Origin: a bacterium
GTDB taxonomy: Bacteria > Planctomycetota > Planctomycetia > Planctomycetales > Planctomycetaceae
Direction: 5' to 3'
Length of the DNA: 64,000 nucleotides
Assembly (NCBI GenBank): GCA_016124895.1
Contig: WGMU01000006.1
Coordinates: 62,001-126,000, forward strand
How positions within the stretch are numbered: the stretch's first letter is position 1; the number at the start of each line of letters is the position of its first letter. Below the pieces are notes generated by a model that worked only from the letters and a program-made list of their open reading frames with translations, was not told the DNA's origin and did no database searches. Both the position numbers and the translations under genes were made by a program. Positions 49,310 to 57,473 of this stretch are shown here, one piece after another.

Positions 49310-49439
49310 ATTGGACAGCGTCACTTTCGGTTGCCGTACAAGCACGAAGCGCAAGCGAGTGAGTCATTTACGTCAAACACACTCGCTTGCGCTTCGTGCT
49401 TGTATCCTCGCACATTTCGCCAAAGTGGCGCTGTCCAAT
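49310..49439. repeat. Nested composite palindrome between divergent genes
   Basis: The outer arms (49310-49327 ATTGGACAGCGTCACTTT; 49422-49439) pair over 18 bp with one mismatch. An unrelated inner pair (49337-49361 and 49380-49404, starting TACAAGCACGAAGCGCAAGC) is a perfect 25-bp inverted repeat with an 18-nt loop. One palindrome may have landed in another. The element lies between the divergent PSCyt1 and nuclease-like genes, close to both starts. Confidence 0.85.
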
Positions 49440-49454
49440 GAAACCGCAGGTCGA

Positions 49455-50621
49455 ATGTCTCTGAGCATGTTGAACAGACTGCTGTCTGAAATCGAGCGAG
49501 GCTGCGTTCGGCTGGTGCTGAGCGACGAGCCGGCTCGCGTTCTTGATGAGCCGGACGGCTCTTCGTCGCAGCAGATCGCCGACGAAGGCCCGTCGCCGCA
49601 GTTCGTTGGCTGCGTCTGGGAATCGCTGCCGGTGCTCGCCGAACTGATTCCCGACGTGCTCGATGCGCTGGCAGAAACCGCGCTGGCCTGCTGGCCGAAC
49701 TGGTACACCGACGCACCGCAGAGTCGCTTCTCATATCGCGCGGAGCAAACCCCGGAACTGTCAGAGTTACTCGCAGTCAGCGCGTTGCGGCAGGCACGCG
49801 TGCCGGTTCTGGAACCGTGGCTCCGCGCGGCGATCGACTGCTGCCGAGCCGGGCGGGTTCCGCGGCCGGCCGGGTTTGCTGACGCGATTCAGGCAGCGCA
49901 GCTCGCGCTGGCGATCGATCCGGCGCGGCTGATCCTGCTGCTTGCGGTGACAAGGGCCGACCAGTCGCCCGACCGGCTCGATGGCCTGGCGCGCGCCGCC
50001 GAATGGTTCGCTCGCGCGACGGGAGCACCGGTGGCCGTCGTCGTTCCGAACGCGCTGGCCGATAACGCGGCGCTCGACAGCATCAGCTTTGACGCGCTGC
50101 GTACCGACGGCGCCGCCGCATGGAATCCTCGACGAGCGATTGACACTGCGAACGTCGACGGACCTTCTTCTTCAGGGACTACGCCGCCGCAACCGTCGCC
50201 GCCACCCGAGCGTTCACGGCTGTTGGTCTGGCCGCTGCAGGGCGTGCCACATCCGCGCAGCGAAGGTGAGCAACGGCTCGCGGAACGATTGCGGCAGGAC
50301 GACGAACTGGCGGCGCTGTTCGAGTTCAATCAGTCGGTGACAACAAACCGCGACTCGCAGCACACCGTCGACCTGCTGTGGCGTGCCGGCCGCATCGTCG
50401 TCGAGATCGACGGCTACCGCTGGCACTCCAGCCGCGAGATGTTCGCCCGCGACCGGCAGCGCGATTACGAGCTGACGATCAGCGGCTTTCTGGTGTTGCG
50501 ATTGACGCACGAAGAAGTGGTGCGCGACGTCGGACTGGCCGTCGAGAAGATCCGCGACCTGGTCCGGTTCCGCGGCACTCGACAGTGGCCAGTCGACCGC
50601 TCCAACGAAAAGTGCCAATGA
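49455..50621 (+). CDS. PD-(D/E)XK nuclease-like protein (DUF559-type C-terminus)
   Basis: The 388-residue protein starts at the ATG 49455, since the upstream frame from 49311 lies in the nested palindrome. The N-terminal ~250 residues are uncharacterised, Ala/Leu-rich and probably helical, ending in a proline-rich linker (SSSGTTPPQPSPPPERSR). From ~residue 268 a DUF559/Vsr-like endonuclease domain follows: SEGEQRLAERL, Asp-306 in TVDLLW, Glu-317/Asp-319 in VVEIDGYRWH and LTISGFLVLRLTHEEVVRD, as in PD-(D/E)XK enzymes. Cytosolic DNA cleavage is inferred from the motif. It lies upstream of a winged-helix gene and a HerA-like ATPase on the same strand, though a 540-bp palindrome-rich gap intervenes. 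Confidence 0.8.
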   Translation: MSLSMLNRLLSEIERGCVRLVLSDEPARVLDEPDGSSSQQIADEGPSPQFVGCVWESLPVLAELIPDVLDALAETALACWPNWYTDAPQSRFSYRAEQTPELSELLAVSALRQARVPVLEPWLRAAIDCCRAGRVPRPAGFADAIQAAQLALAIDPARLILLLAVTRADQSPDRLDGLARAAEWFARATGAPVAVVVPNALADNAALDSISFDALRTDGAAAWNPRRAIDTANVDGPSSSGTTPPQPSPPPERSRLLVWPLQGVPHPRSEGEQRLAERLRQDDELAALFEFNQSVTTNRDSQHTVDLLWRAGRIVVEIDGYRWHSSREMFARDRQRDYELTISGFLVLRLTHEEVVRDVGLAVEKIRDLVRFRGTRQWPVDRSNEKCQ

Positions 50622-50636
50622 GTTTAATCCTGGACC

Positions 50637-50652
50637 ACGGACTGTCAGTCCG
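50637..50652. repeat. Short palindrome after the nuclease-like gene
   Basis: CGGACTGTCAGTCCG is a tight hairpin 15 bp past the stop codon of the nuclease-like gene. It could end its transcript, but no U-tract follows. Confidence 0.4.
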
Positions 50653-50708
50653 TCGGCTCCGGAAGTGATTCACAGTATCCGTTACGGCGAAGCCGTTAAA
50701 TCCATCAG

Positions 50709-50931
50709 CCAGGGGTCAGCGGAGCGGCGCAGCCGCGAAGCGCCGCCCCTGGAAAGTGAAGCCACAATTCGAATTCCCGCTCACGTCAGCCGAAGTGCCC
50801 CTCCCGACGCTGGAGGCAATTTACCAAAGGCCGAACGGTCCGGGCGGCGGGAGGGGCACCTCGGCTGACCACACGGGAACGTCCAGCGCGAACCCCGAAC
50901 CAGGTGTGCGCCGCTGCGCGGCGACACCTGG
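50709..50931. repeat. Three unrelated palindromes in a row
   Basis: In the 541-bp gap between the nuclease-like and winged-helix genes lie three palindromes. They are CCAGGGG...CCCCTGG (50709-50752, inner GCGGCGC/GCGCCGC), a 21-bp inverted repeat with one mismatch at 50785-50805/50849-50869 (GTCAGCCGAAGTGCCCCTCC), and CCAGGTGTGCGCCGC with GCGGCGACACCTGG (50900-50931). No gene is supported in the gap. Transcription from the nuclease-like gene is unlikely to cross so many hairpins unhindered. Confidence 0.75.
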
Positions 50932-51162
50932 CTGTTGAATAAAACGGCTTCGCCGTACGGTGGAGGCGAAGAACCGGAAGTCCGTTCCGCGGCGTTGACG
51001 GTGACGAGGTTTGTATCGCTCGTCCGAACTCTGACGTCAGACGCGGGCGTTCGGTCTGTGTTCTACCATGTCTGCCTGGACAGGTTCAGGATCGCGTCAC
51101 AGACTCCGGGAAGCATCGATTGTTTCTGACCGGTCCCGGTCCGCCCCTTCGAGGAGCACGCG

Positions 51163-51834
51163 ATGGAGTTCTCTCCCGACCCGCTGCAGACACTGTTGCT
51201 GTGGCGACTGCTGGCCGACGACGGCGGCGCGTTTCAACAGGGTCTGAAACCCGATCTACCGAAGCCAAGACGCGACCCGCTGGTCAAAGCGGGGCTGCTG
51301 GAAGTCGTCAAGCGACGAAAGGCGGACGGCGGAAGACCGGTCAACTATCTGCAGCTAACCGATGCCGGCTGGGAGTGGGCCGCCGCGCATCTTGATGCGG
51401 AAGTTTCGCCGCGTTCGACGGCCGCTGGCCCGATTCTTCGCTCGCTACTCACAAAGCTGAAAACGCATCTCTCGCACCAGAATTTGTCGCTGGCCGATTT
51501 CGTTCGACCACCGGGCGAGGAAAAAGGCGCGGGCCGAGAGTCGCGGATCGAGGACGTCGCAACGGGAGCGGTGTCGGCGACCGATCGCGTGCGCCGCGTT
51601 TGTGAACGGCTCGCGCAAAGTCACCGGGGCGTGCGGATTTATCTCGCCGATGTCCGACGGGAACTCGGTGACCTCAGCTGCGACGCCGTTGACTCCGCGC
51701 TGCGCGAGCTGGAACGCGACCGGACGCTCGTGCTTTATCCGCTGGATAACCCGCAGGAGATCAGACCGCAGGACGCCGACGCCGCACTCAACAACAGCGC
51801 CGGACGGCCACGGCACATCGCCTATCTTCCGTGA
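51163..51834 (+). CDS. Winged-helix-like protein preceding the double ATPase
   Basis: The 223-residue protein is not a recognised family. The N-terminal ~75 residues (LQTLLLWRLLADDGGAFQQG, DPLVKAGLLEVVKRRKADGG, VNYLQLTDAGWEWAAAHLDA) read as a winged helix with a basic wing. A second helical segment (TDRVRRVCERLAQSHRGVRI, LADVRRELGDLSCDAVDSAL) may be another helix-turn-helix. It could bind DNA or act as an adaptor for the ATPase. The gene ends 27 nt before the double ATPase and is surely co-transcribed with it. The ATG at 51163 follows GAGGAGCACGCG. Confidence 0.82.
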   Translation: MEFSPDPLQTLLLWRLLADDGGAFQQGLKPDLPKPRRDPLVKAGLLEVVKRRKADGGRPVNYLQLTDAGWEWAAAHLDAEVSPRSTAAGPILRSLLTKLKTHLSHQNLSLADFVRPPGEEKGAGRESRIEDVATGAVSATDRVRRVCERLAQSHRGVRIYLADVRRELGDLSCDAVDSALRELERDRTLVLYPLDNPQEIRPQDADAALNNSAGRPRHIAYLP

Positions 51835-51861
51835 CCTTGTCCGCATTGAGAGAGAATCGAG

Positions 51862-54800
51862 ATGACGACTCTATTTGCAAAGCCGGCGACCACGCTCGAC
51901 CGCTCACGCCGCGACGGAGACTTCGCCATGAATGAACTGGACGTCCTGCGTGCCGTCAGCTTTGACTGGACGATGCACCTCACCAGTGTGTGGAGCGACC
52001 CGCCGTTTGACGTTCCGGATCTCCACGCTGAGCTGCGCAGCGAACTCGAATGGAAACTCGATCAACTCGCCCGGTCGAACGCGCCGGAATCACCGCTTGG
52101 CTGGGTGATCATGGGCAGCGGCGGGACGGGCAAGACGCACCTGCTGTCGATCCTGCGGCGCGAAGCCCGGCAGCGCGGCGTCGCGTTCGTTCTGGTCGAC
52201 ATGACCGACGTCCACGATTTCTGGGAAACGGTTCTGCAGGGCTACACAACGTCGCTGCAGCAGCGGATCGACGGCGTCCAGTTTCAGTACGAACTGCTGC
52301 TCGAACGCTTCTTTGATTCTTTGCACGTGAAGGATTCGCCGGCTCAGGTGCGGATGCTGGCCACTACGAACGCGGATCAACTGCGCCAGGCCGCCGGCCG
52401 GCTCCTCACCGTGCTGCGCGGTCGGGCTCCGGCGGAAACACTGCAGTATCAGGACGTCGTCCGCGTGCTGCTCGCGCTGAACTCGCAGGACTTTGACCTG
52501 TCGAGCGTCGCGCTGACCTGGCTGCAGGGCTTCGAGATCGATGACGCCGATCGCCGGCTGCTGGGGCTCAACCGGCCGCAGGAAAAACCGATGGAGATCG
52601 TGCGGGCGCTGTCCTGGCTGATGAGTCTCTGCGGGCCGACGGTGCTGGCACTCGATCAGCTCGACCCGATCGTCACGCAGCTCAACGTCGCGTCGCGCGA
52701 TCTGGAGTCCGAACCCGACGCCGAAGAACTCCGCGTCGCTCGAACGATTATTGAAAGGCTGGCGGGTGGACTGAGTGCTCTCCGCGACGTGACGCGGCGC
52801 ACGCTGTCGGTCGTGTCGTGTGTTGAGGCAACGTATGCAGTGCTCACCGAACTGACGCTGCACACGAACAAGGATCGCTTCGAGCCGCCGCGAATCCTGG
52901 GCGCCGTCTCGCGGGGCCGGGTCGCGCGCGACGTCGTGCTTTCGCGACTGGAACCGGTGTTCGAACTGACGGGTTTCGAGCCGCCAGTGCCTACGTGGCC
53001 GTTCGCTGTCGAAGCGTTCGATTCGATCAACTCGGACCTGTCGCCGCGCCAGTTGTTGAAACTCTGCTATGACCATCAGCTCGATTGCCTGCGCCGCGGC
53101 GCGGTCTCGCTGCTGTCTTCGTTCCATGCGGATGCGCAGCCCGAGGCACCTCAACCGGAAGCGGAGTCGCATCGGCTGGACGAAGTGTTCGAGAAGCTGC
53201 GCGCCGATGCGCCGCTCGATCAGTTGCTCGAAGAGAAGCGCGACGACGAACTGCTCGGCCCGCTGCTCGAAGCGGCCTGCCGCTGTGTCCTGCGCGAAAC
53301 GCGGCTGCCGGCGGGAGTCGACGGCGCGGTCGATGTCGACTTTGGACCGGCGGGAAAGAAGACGCTGCACGCGCGCCTGCGGCTGATTCATCACAGCGAA
53401 AACAGCCGCGAAGATCACTTCTGCGTTCGCGCGCTGCAGCGGACTCACGCGACGGCGTTCCAGTCGCGGCTGAAAAACGCGATGACGACGTCCGGAATTG
53501 ACCGGCGGCTCAGTTTCCGTCGCCTGGTTCTGGTGCGCACGACGCCGCTGCCTGGCGGTGCAAAGACAACGGCGATGTTTGAGAAGTTTGCGGCAGCGGG
53601 TGGCATCCTCGTCGATCTTTCGATCGAGGATCTGAGAACGCTGTTCGCGCTCGTTCGCCTGGAACAGAAGAACGATGCCGAGTTTTCCGAGTGGCTGCGT
53701 CTGCGACGTCCTGCGACGCAACTCGACCTGATGCGAACCGTCGTGCCGCCACTGTGTGAGCCGACACCCGAGGTCGCGGAGCGGCGCGAGCCGTCAGGTG
53801 CTCCATCGACGGACGAACCTCAACCAGGCAGCCTGCGTCAGTCCGCAGCATCAAACCGGAAACTTCAAACGCCTGTCGAGTCGGACATTCCGCTGTCAGC
53901 GCCTGCAGTTCCCGATACCGCATCGCCTGAAACTCCTGCAACTTCCGAGACGCTCAACCGTAACGTGCTGCCGTTCGGCCGCCGCGTTGTCGGGACTCAA
54001 ACCGGCGAGCCGCTGACGCTCAATGCGGGGCTGCTCGAAAAGCACGCCGTCGTATTTGCCGGAGCCGGTTCAGGAAAGACCGTGCTGCTGAAGCGGCTGA
54101 TCGAAGAAGCAGCGTTGCGTGGCATTCCTTCGATCGTGATTGACGGAGCAAACGATCTCGCCTGCCTGGGAGAACGCTGGCCGGAACCTCCGGCTGGCTG
54201 GCTCGACGGCGATGCGGCTCTGGCCGAGCAGTACTTCTCCACCGTCGAAAACGTCATCTGGACGCCGGGTTCGGAAAGCGGCAATCCGCTGAACCTCGAA
54301 CCGCTGCCGGACCTCGCGGCCGTCGCTGATCAACCGGAGGAACTCGAAGCCGCCGTCGATATGGCCGTCGCGACGCTGAGTGAACTCGTTGCAGAAGGCC
54401 GTTCCAAGAGCGCGCAGAACAAACGCGGCATCCTGACGTCTGCGCTGAAGTTCTTCGCGAAGCAGGGAGGCGGGACGCTGAGGCAGTTTGCAGAGTTGCT
54501 CGCCGATCTGCCGGCCGAGGCCGGACTGGGCATCAGCAAAGAGGACAGACTGGCGGCCGAGATCTCCGACAGTCTGAAAGTCGCGATGGAGACGTCTGCG
54601 ATGCTGCGCGGCAGCGGCACGGGGCTCGATCCGGCGATTCTGTTCGGCGACCTGCCGGGCGCTGAGCGCACCCGGATTTCGGTCATCAGTCTGGCATGGT
54701 TGGCGAGTGTCGAGAGTCGGCGACACTTTCTGAATCAACTGGCGATGACTCTGTTTGCCTGGATCAAACAGCACCCGAGCCCGCCCGGCCGGCGGCTGCG

Positions 54801-55221
54801 CGGTCTGCTGATCATCGACGAGGCGAAGGACTCCGTCCCCGCGACCGGGTCGAGTGCCTGCACGGAAAGCATGGAACGGCTGGTCGCTCAGGCGCGGAAG
54901 TACCACCTGGGCGTGGTCTTCGCGACGCAGAATCCAAAGGACATCCGGCACACGATCGTCAGCAACTGCGCGACGCACTGTTACGGCAAAGTGAACTCGC
55001 CCGCGGCCCGCGACACGCTGACTGAGATGCTGCAGTCCAAAGGCGGTTCCGGCCGCGACATCTCGAACCTGCCCCGCGGCCAGTTCTACCTCCACAACGC
55101 CGACGCCACGCCCACTCCGGTCAAGGTCCAGATGCCCCTGTGCCTGAGCCACCACCGCAGCGACCCACTGACGAGCGAAGAAGTCCGCCAGCGCGCCGCC
55201 GAGTGCGCAGGACGCGGATGA
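51862..55221 (+). CDS. Double ATPase: unknown AAA module fused to a HerA/DUF87-like ATPase
   Basis: The 1119-residue cytosolic protein has two P-loops. Module 1 (residues ~25-630) has Walker A GSGGTGKT (85-92), an atypical Walker B VLALDQLD (261-268) and a long C-terminal part with conserved CRC near 473-475. An E/P/S/T-rich linker (630-700) follows. Module 2 (~705-1110) is HerA/FtsK-like: Walker A AGAGSGKT (733-740), Walker B LLIIDEAKD (Asp-986, Glu-987), VVFATQNPKDI (1018-1028) and the tail RGQFYLHNADATPTPVK. HerA-like motors pump or translocate DNA and often pair with nucleases. The gene follows the winged-helix gene by 27 nt; no relaxase or T4SS gene is near. Confidence 0.88.
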   Translation: MTTLFAKPATTLDRSRRDGDFAMNELDVLRAVSFDWTMHLTSVWSDPPFDVPDLHAELRSELEWKLDQLARSNAPESPLGWVIMGSGGTGKTHLLSILRREARQRGVAFVLVDMTDVHDFWETVLQGYTTSLQQRIDGVQFQYELLLERFFDSLHVKDSPAQVRMLATTNADQLRQAAGRLLTVLRGRAPAETLQYQDVVRVLLALNSQDFDLSSVALTWLQGFEIDDADRRLLGLNRPQEKPMEIVRALSWLMSLCGPTVLALDQLDPIVTQLNVASRDLESEPDAEELRVARTIIERLAGGLSALRDVTRRTLSVVSCVEATYAVLTELTLHTNKDRFEPPRILGAVSRGRVARDVVLSRLEPVFELTGFEPPVPTWPFAVEAFDSINSDLSPRQLLKLCYDHQLDCLRRGAVSLLSSFHADAQPEAPQPEAESHRLDEVFEKLRADAPLDQLLEEKRDDELLGPLLEAACRCVLRETRLPAGVDGAVDVDFGPAGKKTLHARLRLIHHSENSREDHFCVRALQRTHATAFQSRLKNAMTTSGIDRRLSFRRLVLVRTTPLPGGAKTTAMFEKFAAAGGILVDLSIEDLRTLFALVRLEQKNDAEFSEWLRLRRPATQLDLMRTVVPPLCEPTPEVAERREPSGAPSTDEPQPGSLRQSAASNRKLQTPVESDIPLSAPAVPDTASPETPATSETLNRNVLPFGRRVVGTQTGEPLTLNAGLLEKHAVVFAGAGSGKTVLLKRLIEEAALRGIPSIVIDGANDLACLGERWPEPPAGWLDGDAALAEQYFSTVENVIWTPGSESGNPLNLEPLPDLAAVADQPEELEAAVDMAVATLSELVAEGRSKSAQNKRGILTSALKFFAKQGGGTLRQFAELLADLPAEAGLGISKEDRLAAEISDSLKVAMETSAMLRGSGTGLDPAILFGDLPGAERTRISVISLAWLASVESRRHFLNQLAMTLFAWIKQHPSPPGRRLRGLLIIDEAKDSVPATGSSACTESMERLVAQARKYHLGVVFATQNPKDIRHTIVSNCATHCYGKVNSPAARDTLTEMLQSKGGSGRDISNLPRGQFYLHNADATPTPVKVQMPLCLSHHRSDPLTSEEVRQRAAECAGRG

Positions 55222-55406
55222 TGCCCTCATACGGCGTTGCGAGCTTCGTCATACGAGACGTTTTTTGACAGGCGGTTCTTCCACGACCTCTCCGAAGCTG
55301 TGCAGTTCCAGTGCTCACAGGCTGCTGGAGTGGACGGCTGGCGCACCGGGGGTCAAAGTGGTTTGATTGATTTCCGCTCCCGTGCTGACGTTTTTCAGGC
55401 TGGTCA

Positions 55407-57473
55407 ATGTCTGCTTTGTCTCCCCTCGCTGTTGCCGATTCTCTCGCTGGGGACCAAACGCCGATGACATCCGTTTCTCCGCTCGACGCGCTGCGGGCGG
55501 TCGACTTTGACGGGACGCTGCATCTGGCGAGTGTGTGGGCGACGCCGCGGTTTGACGTTAACGGGCTGCATGCAGAAGTGCGGCGCGAACTGCTCACCGT
55601 TCTCGATGAGCTGGCTTCACAGAATGAGCCGCGGTCGCCGCTCGGGCGCGTGATTGTTGGCAGCGGCGGGACAGGAAAGACGCATCTGCTGTCGGTGCTG
55701 CGGCGGGAAGCCAGCCAGCGCGGTTGCAGCTTCGTGCTGATTGATATGACGGCCGTCCGTGATTTTCCGGCAACGGTGCTGCAGGGTCTGGTGGATTCGC
55801 TCGGTCGGACCATTGATGGACCGGGTGAAGCGAACGGACCGGAGGCGTCAAGTGAGCAGCAGCCGCAGTATCGAACGCTGCTGGCGCGGCTGCTGAGCAC
55901 GTTCGAGCTGGCTGAACCGGTGTCGCGCAGCATCGAGAAGCTCGAACATTTCAGCCCCGACCGGCTGTTGAGAAACATCGCTCTGCTGCTGACAGAAATG
56001 AGCCGTCGGCATCCGCCCGAGACGATGCAGTTTCAGGATGCGCTGCGGGCACTGATCGCTCTGAACTCGCGCGACCTGCAGGTTTCAACTCTCGGGCTGC
56101 GCTGGTTACAGGCTTCGGAACTCGACACCGACGAGCGACGAATGCTCGGCTTCACGCGGTCGCAGTCTGAACCATTCGAGATCGTGCGCGCCATGTCCTG
56201 GCTGATGAGTCTCTGCGGGCCGACGGTCATTGCGTTCGACCAGCTCGACCCGATCGTCCATCAACTGCAGTTGGCGAATGCTCATGCCGAAGCGGGTGAG
56301 TCACTGCCGCAATCGGTGCTCGCGGCACGGTCGATCGTCGAGCAGATTGCCGGAGGTCTGAGCGCGTTGCGCGACGTAACGCGGCGTACGCTGCTGGTCG
56401 TTTCGTGCGTCGAAGCAACGCTCGACGTTCTGCGACGACACGCCTTGCGGCAGGATCTGGAACGTTTCGAGTCACCGCTGATGCTCGGTTCGCTCCCGGA
56501 CGACGCAGTCGCCCGTTCGGTCGTCGTCCAGCGACTCGGTGACGCGTTCGATCGAACAGGGTTCTCACCGCCCTGGCCGACATGGCCGTTTCGTCCCGAG
56601 CTGTTCGACAATCTGCTGGGGCTCTCGCCTCGCGAGATCCTGCGGCTGTGTGCCGAGCATCGGCGCCGCTGTCTGATACGCGGCCAAGTGGTCGAGCTGT
56701 CGTCGTTCGCTGTCGACGAAGATGCTCATCAGCACGGGAGTTCGCCCGGCGAAGGCGCGAGCGAGTCCGGCGAGCGCGAAGTTTCGATTCCCTTCCGCAA
56801 GCAGGCTCATGAACTGGTTCATGAGTCAATCAGTAAACCTGATGGCGGAAAGTCCGACGGCTCGCCCGTGCCGACTGAACAGCAGATGCTCGATGCTGAG
56901 TTTGACCGCCTGAAGAGCGAGGCCGATCCAGCGAGCCTGCTCGCAAAACTGCACGACGACGAGCGACTCGCCCCGCTGCTGCAGACGGCCTGCCGCTGCC
57001 TGATTCGCGAATGCCGACTGCCGGAAGGCGTCGATGCTTCAGTCGAAACGGACTTCGGCAATCCGAAGCTGCCGCCGCTGCACGCGCGACTGCGTCTGGT
57101 GCAGTCGGGCGACGAAACCGAGCGGCACCTCTGCCTGAGGGCTCTGCAGCGCGACAACGCGACTGCGTTTCAAACGCGACTGAAGTCCGCGCTGACGGCG
57201 TCGGGTATCGCGGCTGATCTCCCGTTTCGCCGACTCGCCATCTTTCGGCGCGGCAGCGTTCCGTCCGGCCCGGCAACGGAACAACTGCTGAACGAATTCC
57301 GCGAAGCAGGCGGCTGGCTGATCTCGTTGAGCGACGACGACCTGCGAACTCTGCAGGCATTGAACCAGCTCGAAACAACCCAATCGCCAGCGTTCGTCGA
57401 CTGGCTGAAACGTCGCGGCCCGGTTTCGTCCCTCGAAGGTTTCCGTGCTCTCACGGCCGACTGGTTCCCGTAA
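55407..57473 (+). CDS. Stand-alone copy of the unknown AAA module
   Basis: The 688-residue protein aligns end to end with module 1 of the preceding ATPase and lacks the HerA part. In an ungapped hand alignment of residues 25-120, 66 of 96 positions match (including Walker A GSGGTGKTHLLS at 85-96). Later blocks also match: SWLMSLCGPTVIAFDQLDPI, RTLLVVSCVEATLDVL, the CRC stretch and the closing LHARLRL region. The ATG at 55407 makes the two N-termini the same length; 55464 is an alternative. The 185-bp gap to the preceding stop allows a shared transcript. It probably arose by duplication and may form a complex with the fused copy. Confidence 0.85.
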   Translation: MSALSPLAVADSLAGDQTPMTSVSPLDALRAVDFDGTLHLASVWATPRFDVNGLHAEVRRELLTVLDELASQNEPRSPLGRVIVGSGGTGKTHLLSVLRREASQRGCSFVLIDMTAVRDFPATVLQGLVDSLGRTIDGPGEANGPEASSEQQPQYRTLLARLLSTFELAEPVSRSIEKLEHFSPDRLLRNIALLLTEMSRRHPPETMQFQDALRALIALNSRDLQVSTLGLRWLQASELDTDERRMLGFTRSQSEPFEIVRAMSWLMSLCGPTVIAFDQLDPIVHQLQLANAHAEAGESLPQSVLAARSIVEQIAGGLSALRDVTRRTLLVVSCVEATLDVLRRHALRQDLERFESPLMLGSLPDDAVARSVVVQRLGDAFDRTGFSPPWPTWPFRPELFDNLLGLSPREILRLCAEHRRRCLIRGQVVELSSFAVDEDAHQHGSSPGEGASESGEREVSIPFRKQAHELVHESISKPDGGKSDGSPVPTEQQMLDAEFDRLKSEADPASLLAKLHDDERLAPLLQTACRCLIRECRLPEGVDASVETDFGNPKLPPLHARLRLVQSGDETERHLCLRALQRDNATAFQTRLKSALTASGIAADLPFRRLAIFRRGSVPSGPATEQLLNEFREAGGWLISLSDDDLRTLQALNQLETTQSPAFVDWLKRRGPVSSLEGFRALTADWFP

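What the first reader, a model, noticed from the sequence alone, without database searches (positions are those of the whole stretch)
49455..57473. Uncharacterised nuclease / winged-helix / double-ATPase locus, a candidate new defence-like system
Four same-strand genes lie together: a protein with a DUF559/PD-(D/E)XK nuclease end (Asp-306, Glu-317, Asp-319), a winged-helix protein, a 1119-residue fusion of an unknown AAA module with a HerA/DUF87-like ATPase, and a free copy of the AAA module. HerA-type motors paired with nucleases are known from HerA-NurA and from antiphage HerA-Sir2 and HerA-DUF4297 pairs. Here I see no NurA, Sir2, PglZ/PglX, relaxase or T4SS gene, so it does not fit a system I know. 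Seen directly: domains and motifs. Inference: joint function. The 541-bp palindrome-rich gap after the nuclease-like gene weakens the link between that gene and the rest.
Basis: partly seen in the sequence, partly recalled or inferred. Interest (0 to 1): 0.78.

Follow-up and report, generated by a model that had tools for sequence, protein, structure and literature searches.

The report
DNA-motor and nuclease defence operon
A planctomycete operon pairs a DNA-cutting enzyme and a small DNA-binding-type protein with a large two-motor ATPase; the same set recurs patchily in distant bacterial phyla and most likely catches and cuts invading DNA, a kind of system proposed from sequence analysis in 2024.

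Summary
The four genes are real and where stated: DUF559 nuclease (388 aa), winged-helix-type protein (223 aa), ORC-like AAA–HerA fusion (1119 aa), free AAA copy (688 aa). In 90 of 90 homologous loci (88 distinct; several phyla) the wHTH gene lies just upstream of the fusion; in 55 of 90 the nuclease precedes it, usually almost touching. So the nuclease belongs, and the window's 541-bp gap is an exception that carries a dispersed repeat. The free AAA copy does not recur. Two diverged sister architectures keep wHTH, AAA and HerA; one replaces the DUF559 gene by a Cas4-like, four-cysteine nuclease fused to HerA. The grammar 'ORC/CDC6 ATPase + HerA + nuclease + wHTH' was proposed as an anti-invader 'HerA/FtsK capture' system in PMC10853773, so this is a new variant of a known kind. 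Restriction of invading DNA is the likeliest job, by inference. Against it: at most 4 of 110 flanking proteins match PADLOC, no phage or viral copy was found, 35 of 90 loci lack the nuclease, and 19 of 88 loci share one neighbourhood, in the ribosomal protein cluster where read.

The parts
49455..50621 (+). Nuclease gene: N-terminal ORC/STAND-like P-loop-type domain without a recognisable Walker A (residues 1-220), C-terminal DUF559/Vsr-like nuclease (residues 267-375)
   Evidence: Pfam DUF559; invariant D306, E317, D319, H324, D333, R336, D337 in 40 homologues; model matches 3hrl Z 12.9, 3r3p Z 12.7, 1vsr Z 9.2; N-terminus ORC and RdrA chains Z about 8.9
50622..51162 (.). Gap filled by a dispersed, inverted-repeat-rich element; not a coding part
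   Evidence: Inverted repeats; matches to parts of it on contigs C158, C85, C189, C34; in 46 of 55 relatives with the nuclease its stop lies within 48 nt of the wHTH domain
51163..51834 (+). Winged-helix-type protein; its C-terminal domain is shared with the second genes of both sister architectures
   Evidence: Upstream of the fusion in 90 of 90 loci; weak winged-helix family matches; profile matches E 2.5e-10 and 2.4e-5
51862..55221 (+). Fusion: ORC/Cdc6-like AAA (residues about 25-430), alpha+beta domain (433-640, perhaps an inactive REase), HerA motor (about 712-1110)
   Evidence: Model of residues 1-642, pLDDT 89.8; 1w5t Z 16.3, rmsd 3.6 over 268; Pfam DUF87 and HerA_C; Walker A K91 invariant; HerA Walker A lysine, D and E of Walker B and Q conserved in 15 sequences
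55407..57473 (+). Free copy of the AAA plus alpha+beta module; local paralogue, function unknown
   Evidence: 47% identity to the fusion's AAA part; no second intact AAA gene in the DNA held for the other loci

Best explanation
An accessory anti-invader DNA restriction machine of the ORC/Cdc6-HerA ('HerA/FtsK capture') kind. The wHTH protein and the ORC-like AAA module bind and mark DNA; the HerA part forms a ring motor that pumps the bound DNA; the DUF559 nuclease, docked through its ATPase-dead-looking N-terminal domain, cuts what is delivered. Shown: gene content and order, conservation, intact motifs, fold assignment by model, replacement of the nuclease in sister loci. Inferred: complex formation, ring assembly, pumping, cutting, and that invaders are the target. 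How self is spared is unknown.
For: wHTH 90 of 90 and nuclease 55 of 90 loci, mostly operon-tight. Catalytic residues invariant. AAA is ORC-like, motor HerA-like. Sister loci fuse a Cas4-like nuclease with invariant H, D, D-Y-K and four Cys to HerA, which ties nuclease to motor; the AAA proteins are homologous over 511 columns (E 2.9e-19). Patchy: 11 of 149 relatives, own included; 28 of 118; 1 of 28. Full-length copies in three records of the plasmid collection. Same domain grammar proposed as anti-invader.
Against: No defence-island signal: at most 4 of 110 flanking proteins match PADLOC at 1e-10, and 1 of 10 in the window, a phosphoesterase. No viral or phage copies. 35 of 90 loci lack the nuclease. 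19 of 88 loci share one neighbourhood and 14 another, so long vertical residence is likely in parts of Actinomycetota. One of the three plasmid records is 11.85 Mb and looks chromosomal. No functional data.
Confidence: 0.58

Rival explanations
1. A cellular DNA-processing or repair machine comparable to HerA-NurA: the motor feeds broken ends to the nuclease, without a defence role.
For: HerA plus nuclease is the HerA-NurA plan (known biology; PMC12977600 seen in a listing only). Fixed neighbourhoods in many Actinomycetota and absence of a defence-island signal fit a housekeeping use.
Against: Patchy in every group searched; nuclease exchanged or missing; no match to NurA appears among the Pfam hits of the nuclease.
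Confidence: 0.2
2. A barrier specific to plasmids or conjugation rather than phages, acting while the DNA is being transferred or segregated.
For: HerA/FtsK motors are proposed to catch DNA during segregation, transfer or packaging (PMC10853773).
Against: Nothing here separates plasmids from phages as targets; some copies lie on plasmid records themselves.
Confidence: 0.13
3. A remnant of a Tn7-like or conjugative mobile element, AAA plus nuclease being parts of its transposition or transfer machinery.
For: The AAA model also matches TnsC (Z 13.6); TrwB_AAD_bind passes its Pfam cut-off (25.6 against 20.5), but its best stretch is only residues 82-115 around Walker A.
Against: None of 10 flanking window proteins has a transposase, relaxase or T4SS domain; no such gene recurs among the neighbours by clustering, though these were not all family-scanned; VirB4, TraC and TraD models stay far below cut-off.
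Confidence: 0.05

Closest known systems
ORC/CDC6-type 'HerA/FtsK capture' systems (PMC10853773; passages and sections 22 and 26 read)
   Same: ORC/CDC6-like AAA, HerA motor, wHTH and an active nuclease, in one or several polypeptides; proposed to intercept and pump invader DNA to the nuclease.
   Different: Here the nuclease is DUF559/Vsr-like with an ATPase-dead ORC/STAND-like N-terminus; DUF559 and Vsr do not occur in that main text. The paper speaks of two REase families; its supplements could not be read. Extra free AAA gene in the window.
BREX and BREX-related capture (BRC) systems (PMC12839542; section 36 and passages read)
   Same: ORC/Cdc6-like AAA (the sister-type AAA passes Pfam BrxC_BrxD; BrxC 9zdx among fold matches, Z 12.3), HerA in BRC, inactive STAND domains, wHTH.
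   Different: In the window no PglZ and no methylase among 10 flanking proteins; three core genes only.
HerA-SIR2, HerA-DUF4297, HerA-NurA
   Same: HerA motor paired with an effector; solved HerA chains are the hits of the motor profile (best 1.5e-14).
   Different: 22.7 and 25.4 bits against cut-offs of 800 and 850 for NCBIfam antiphage HerA; no SIR2 or DUF4297 match; extra ORC-like AAA and wHTH.
MADS (PADLOC mad1-mad8)
   Same: The HerA part matches mad8 at 1.2e-27.
   Different: wHTH and nuclease match no mad model; AAA only weakly. MADS was known here only as a PADLOC name; searches gave no usable text.

Membership tests
ORC/CDC6-type HerA/FtsK capture system | ORC/CDC6 family AAA+ ATPase | tested here: met
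   ORC2 1w5t Z 16.3, rmsd 3.6 over 268 residues; Foldseek 1fnn 9.3e-5
ORC/CDC6-type HerA/FtsK capture system | HerA/FtsK motor | tested here: met
   DUF87 and HerA_C above cut-off; HerA chains by profile; Q in the sensor position nearly invariant (reading by eye)
ORC/CDC6-type HerA/FtsK capture system | Inactive REase between the AAA core and a C-terminal wHTH | tested here: inconclusive
   Residues 433-640 show a helix-strand-strand-strand-helix-strand order in the model, but the fold search rows hardly covered them
ORC/CDC6-type HerA/FtsK capture system | Active REase of one of two families | tested here: inconclusive
   A nuclease with invariant catalytic residues is present; whether DUF559 is one of the paper's two families could not be checked
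ORC/CDC6-type HerA/FtsK capture system | wHTH | tested here: inconclusive
   Weak winged-helix matches in a minority of members; no credible PDB profile match
BREX / BRC | PglZ (and a methylase in BREX) in the locus | tested here: not met
   None among the four genes or 10 flanking window proteins
HerA-SIR2 / HerA-DUF4297 | Antiphage HerA equivalog with SIR2 or DUF4297 partner | tested here: not met
   NCBIfam scores far below cut-off; no such partner domain
HerA-NurA | NurA nuclease partner | tested here: not met
   The nuclease is DUF559
MADS | Further mad proteins beside mad8 | tested here: not met
   Only the HerA part matches well; no mad match in 10 flanking window proteins
Conjugation machinery | Relaxase or T4SS genes beside the motor | tested here: not met
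   None in 10 flanking window proteins; T4SS ATPase models far below cut-off; one short TrwB_AAD_bind match over Walker A only

The most novel reading that the evidence does not exclude
A multi-phylum DNA-capture machine in which a constant wHTH / ORC-AAA / HerA core accepts exchangeable nucleases: a dead-ATPase-DUF559 subunit in two branches, a Cas4-like iron-sulphur-type nuclease fused to the motor in a third, none or an unrelated protein in others. The core, not the nuclease, would be the sensor, and in the window lineage a free AAA subunit would build a mixed ring that controls loading.
Probability: 0.3. Interest if true: 0.68.

Novelty: new variant of a known kind. Interest (0 to 1): 0.5.

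Why it matters
It turns a set of unnamed genes spread over planctomycetes, actinobacteria, cyanobacteria and other phyla into a compact three-gene test case for the 'HerA/FtsK capture' proposal, with invariant catalytic residues to mutate, and it shows exchange of the nuclease around a fixed motor core. No PADLOC-DB 2.0.0 model matched beyond the HerA part.

Tried and rejected
Viral contigs: 600 stretches matched a pattern, none a relative. Phage records: none. PDB profile of the wHTH family: mainly calmodulin rows at E 0.012-0.14, judged spurious; Lrs14-like 0.018 and MarR 0.082 are suggestive only. PDB profile of the Cas4-like domain: nothing. Defence islands: 110 proteins drawn at random from flanking ORFs of 17 loci (156 ORFs of at least 130 aa; those over 900 aa left out) gave 2 mad3, 1 QatD, 1 HTH_VI; a control set was listed but not scanned. 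My ORF caller picks wrong frames in GC-rich DNA, so nuclease and wHTH counts were redone with HMMs on all ORFs. First tblastn runs failed and were repeated. Tree: quick method, long branches, two Rhodococcus rows mislabelled as Cyanobacteriota, five loci left out (two duplicates, one split, one broken, one cut by a contig end); used only for coarse grouping and no transfer is claimed from it. G001, the same-genus genome without a match, is 84% complete in 1210 pieces, so absence there is not certain. MADS literature: none usable (PMC12926258 passages only). Searches were read as listings.

Full report
Setting. The window lies in an 8.13-Mb genome. Around the finding stand ThiG, a PSD1/PSCyt (DUF1553) protein, ribosomal protein L28, GatA and GatB (Pfam), a planctomycete-type background.

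Parts. The nuclease ends in DUF559 (35 bits, cut-off 20.6), with D306, E317, D319, H324, D333, R336 and D337 invariant in 40 homologues. Its model (pLDDT 80) matches 3hrl (Z 12.9), 3r3p (Z 12.7) and Vsr (Z 9.2); residues 1-220 match ORC and RdrA chains at Z about 8.9, close to the level where chance arrangements begin, and no Walker A is seen by eye. The second protein is winged-helix-like on weak evidence. The fusion joins an ORC/Cdc6-like AAA (Z 16.3), an alpha+beta domain, and a HerA motor. The last gene is a free copy of the AAA plus alpha+beta part (47% identity).

Linkage. wHTH directly upstream: 90 of 90; its stop lies within 54 nt of the AAA domain in 87. Nuclease upstream of the wHTH: 55 of 90; within 48 nt of the wHTH domain in 46 of the 55. 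The window's gap is an exception and carries a dispersed repeat. No other locus shows a second intact AAA gene in the DNA held.

Without nuclease. 35 of 90 loci, among them 21 of the 24 Mycobacteriaceae loci (counted). Four Streptosporangiaceae loci carry another gene family at that place.

Sister architectures. L043-L050: wHTH in 8 of 8, DUF559 nuclease in 6 of 8; in one of the six it is broken by a frame change and the ATPase is split (L050). L051-L055: wHTH, separate AAA, and HerA with an N-terminal PDDEXK_1 nuclease (tested in L052: 1.7e-12); H56, D177, D192-Y-K194 and four cysteines are invariant in 5 of 5. The iron-sulphur reading is inference. Profiles: AAA E 2.9e-19 over 511 columns, nuclease domain E 2.5e-20, wHTH C-terminus E 2.5e-10 and 2.4e-5. 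L061-L065 have wHTH and AAA matches without a HerA match in the stretch searched.

Distribution. Full-length fusion: 11 of 149 relatives, own included; 5 of 392 genomes of the phylum at E 2.5e-265 or better, own included; 28 of 118 and 1 of 28 in two actinobacterial genus samples, their seed genomes included. G001 of the same genus has no match; its DNA matches the window up to 49115 on one contig and from 57520 on another, each with other neighbours, so the locus lies at a breakpoint between the two genomes. The 88 distinct loci form 44 neighbourhood groups of 19, 14, 6, 5 and fewer. Of the 19, four were read (L101, L139, L115, L089): all lie beside an S17-like gene in the ribosomal protein cluster, L101 also beside an L14-like gene (names by eye). 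Plasmid collection: three records with at least 80% coverage, one of 11.85 Mb.

For and against defence. For: domain grammar, patchiness, nuclease exchange. Against: at most 4 of 110 flanking proteins and 1 of 10 in the window match PADLOC; no viral copies; shared neighbourhoods in Actinomycetota.

In print. PMC10853773 (sections 22 and 26) describes ORC/CDC6 ATPase, inactive REase, active REase, HerA/FtsK and wHTH in varied fusions, some with an exonuclease fused to HerA, and proposes interception of invader DNA. PMC12839542 (section 36 and passages) adds BRC systems and describes inactive STAND domains as sensors. DUF559 does not occur in either main text; supplements were out of reach. I therefore file it as a new variant of that kind, with three of five defining features inconclusive.

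Noticed in passing
L101, L139, L115, L089: The operon sits inside the ribosomal protein cluster, beside an S17-like gene, in actinobacteria; 19 of 88 loci share this neighbourhood group. It may be an insertion hotspot.
   Followed up: partly
L089 12431-12724 and L115 12290-12583: The record titled Kitasatospora arboriphila has an S17-like protein identical to that of Williamsia limnetica, so it is probably mistitled or contaminated.
   Followed up: no
L051-L055: Cas4-like nuclease with four invariant cysteines fused to a HerA motor, next to separate wHTH and AAA genes.
   Followed up: partly
L103, L114, L124, L129: Streptosporangiaceae carry a different protein family, without known name here, at the place of the nuclease.
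   Followed up: no
L056-L060: A HerA-like gene of about 810-830 aa, matching the motor part only, found in many of the 105 of 149 relatives with any match; without the AAA or wHTH partners in the loci read. Own genome and G001 show none.
   Followed up: partly
L050 8556-12994: A sister-type ATPase gene split by two insertion-sequence-like ORFs (by eye), with the nuclease frame also broken; described only.
   Followed up: no
L061-L065: wHTH plus AAA genes without a HerA match beside them, in genomes some of which also carry the full system.
   Followed up: no
window 49337-49404: A near-perfect 28-bp inverted repeat between the divergent PSD1 and nuclease genes, overlapping the start of the PSD1 ORF.
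   Followed up: no
G001 contigs: 196 matches to the PSD1/DUF1553 protein in one genome: a very large family.
   Followed up: no
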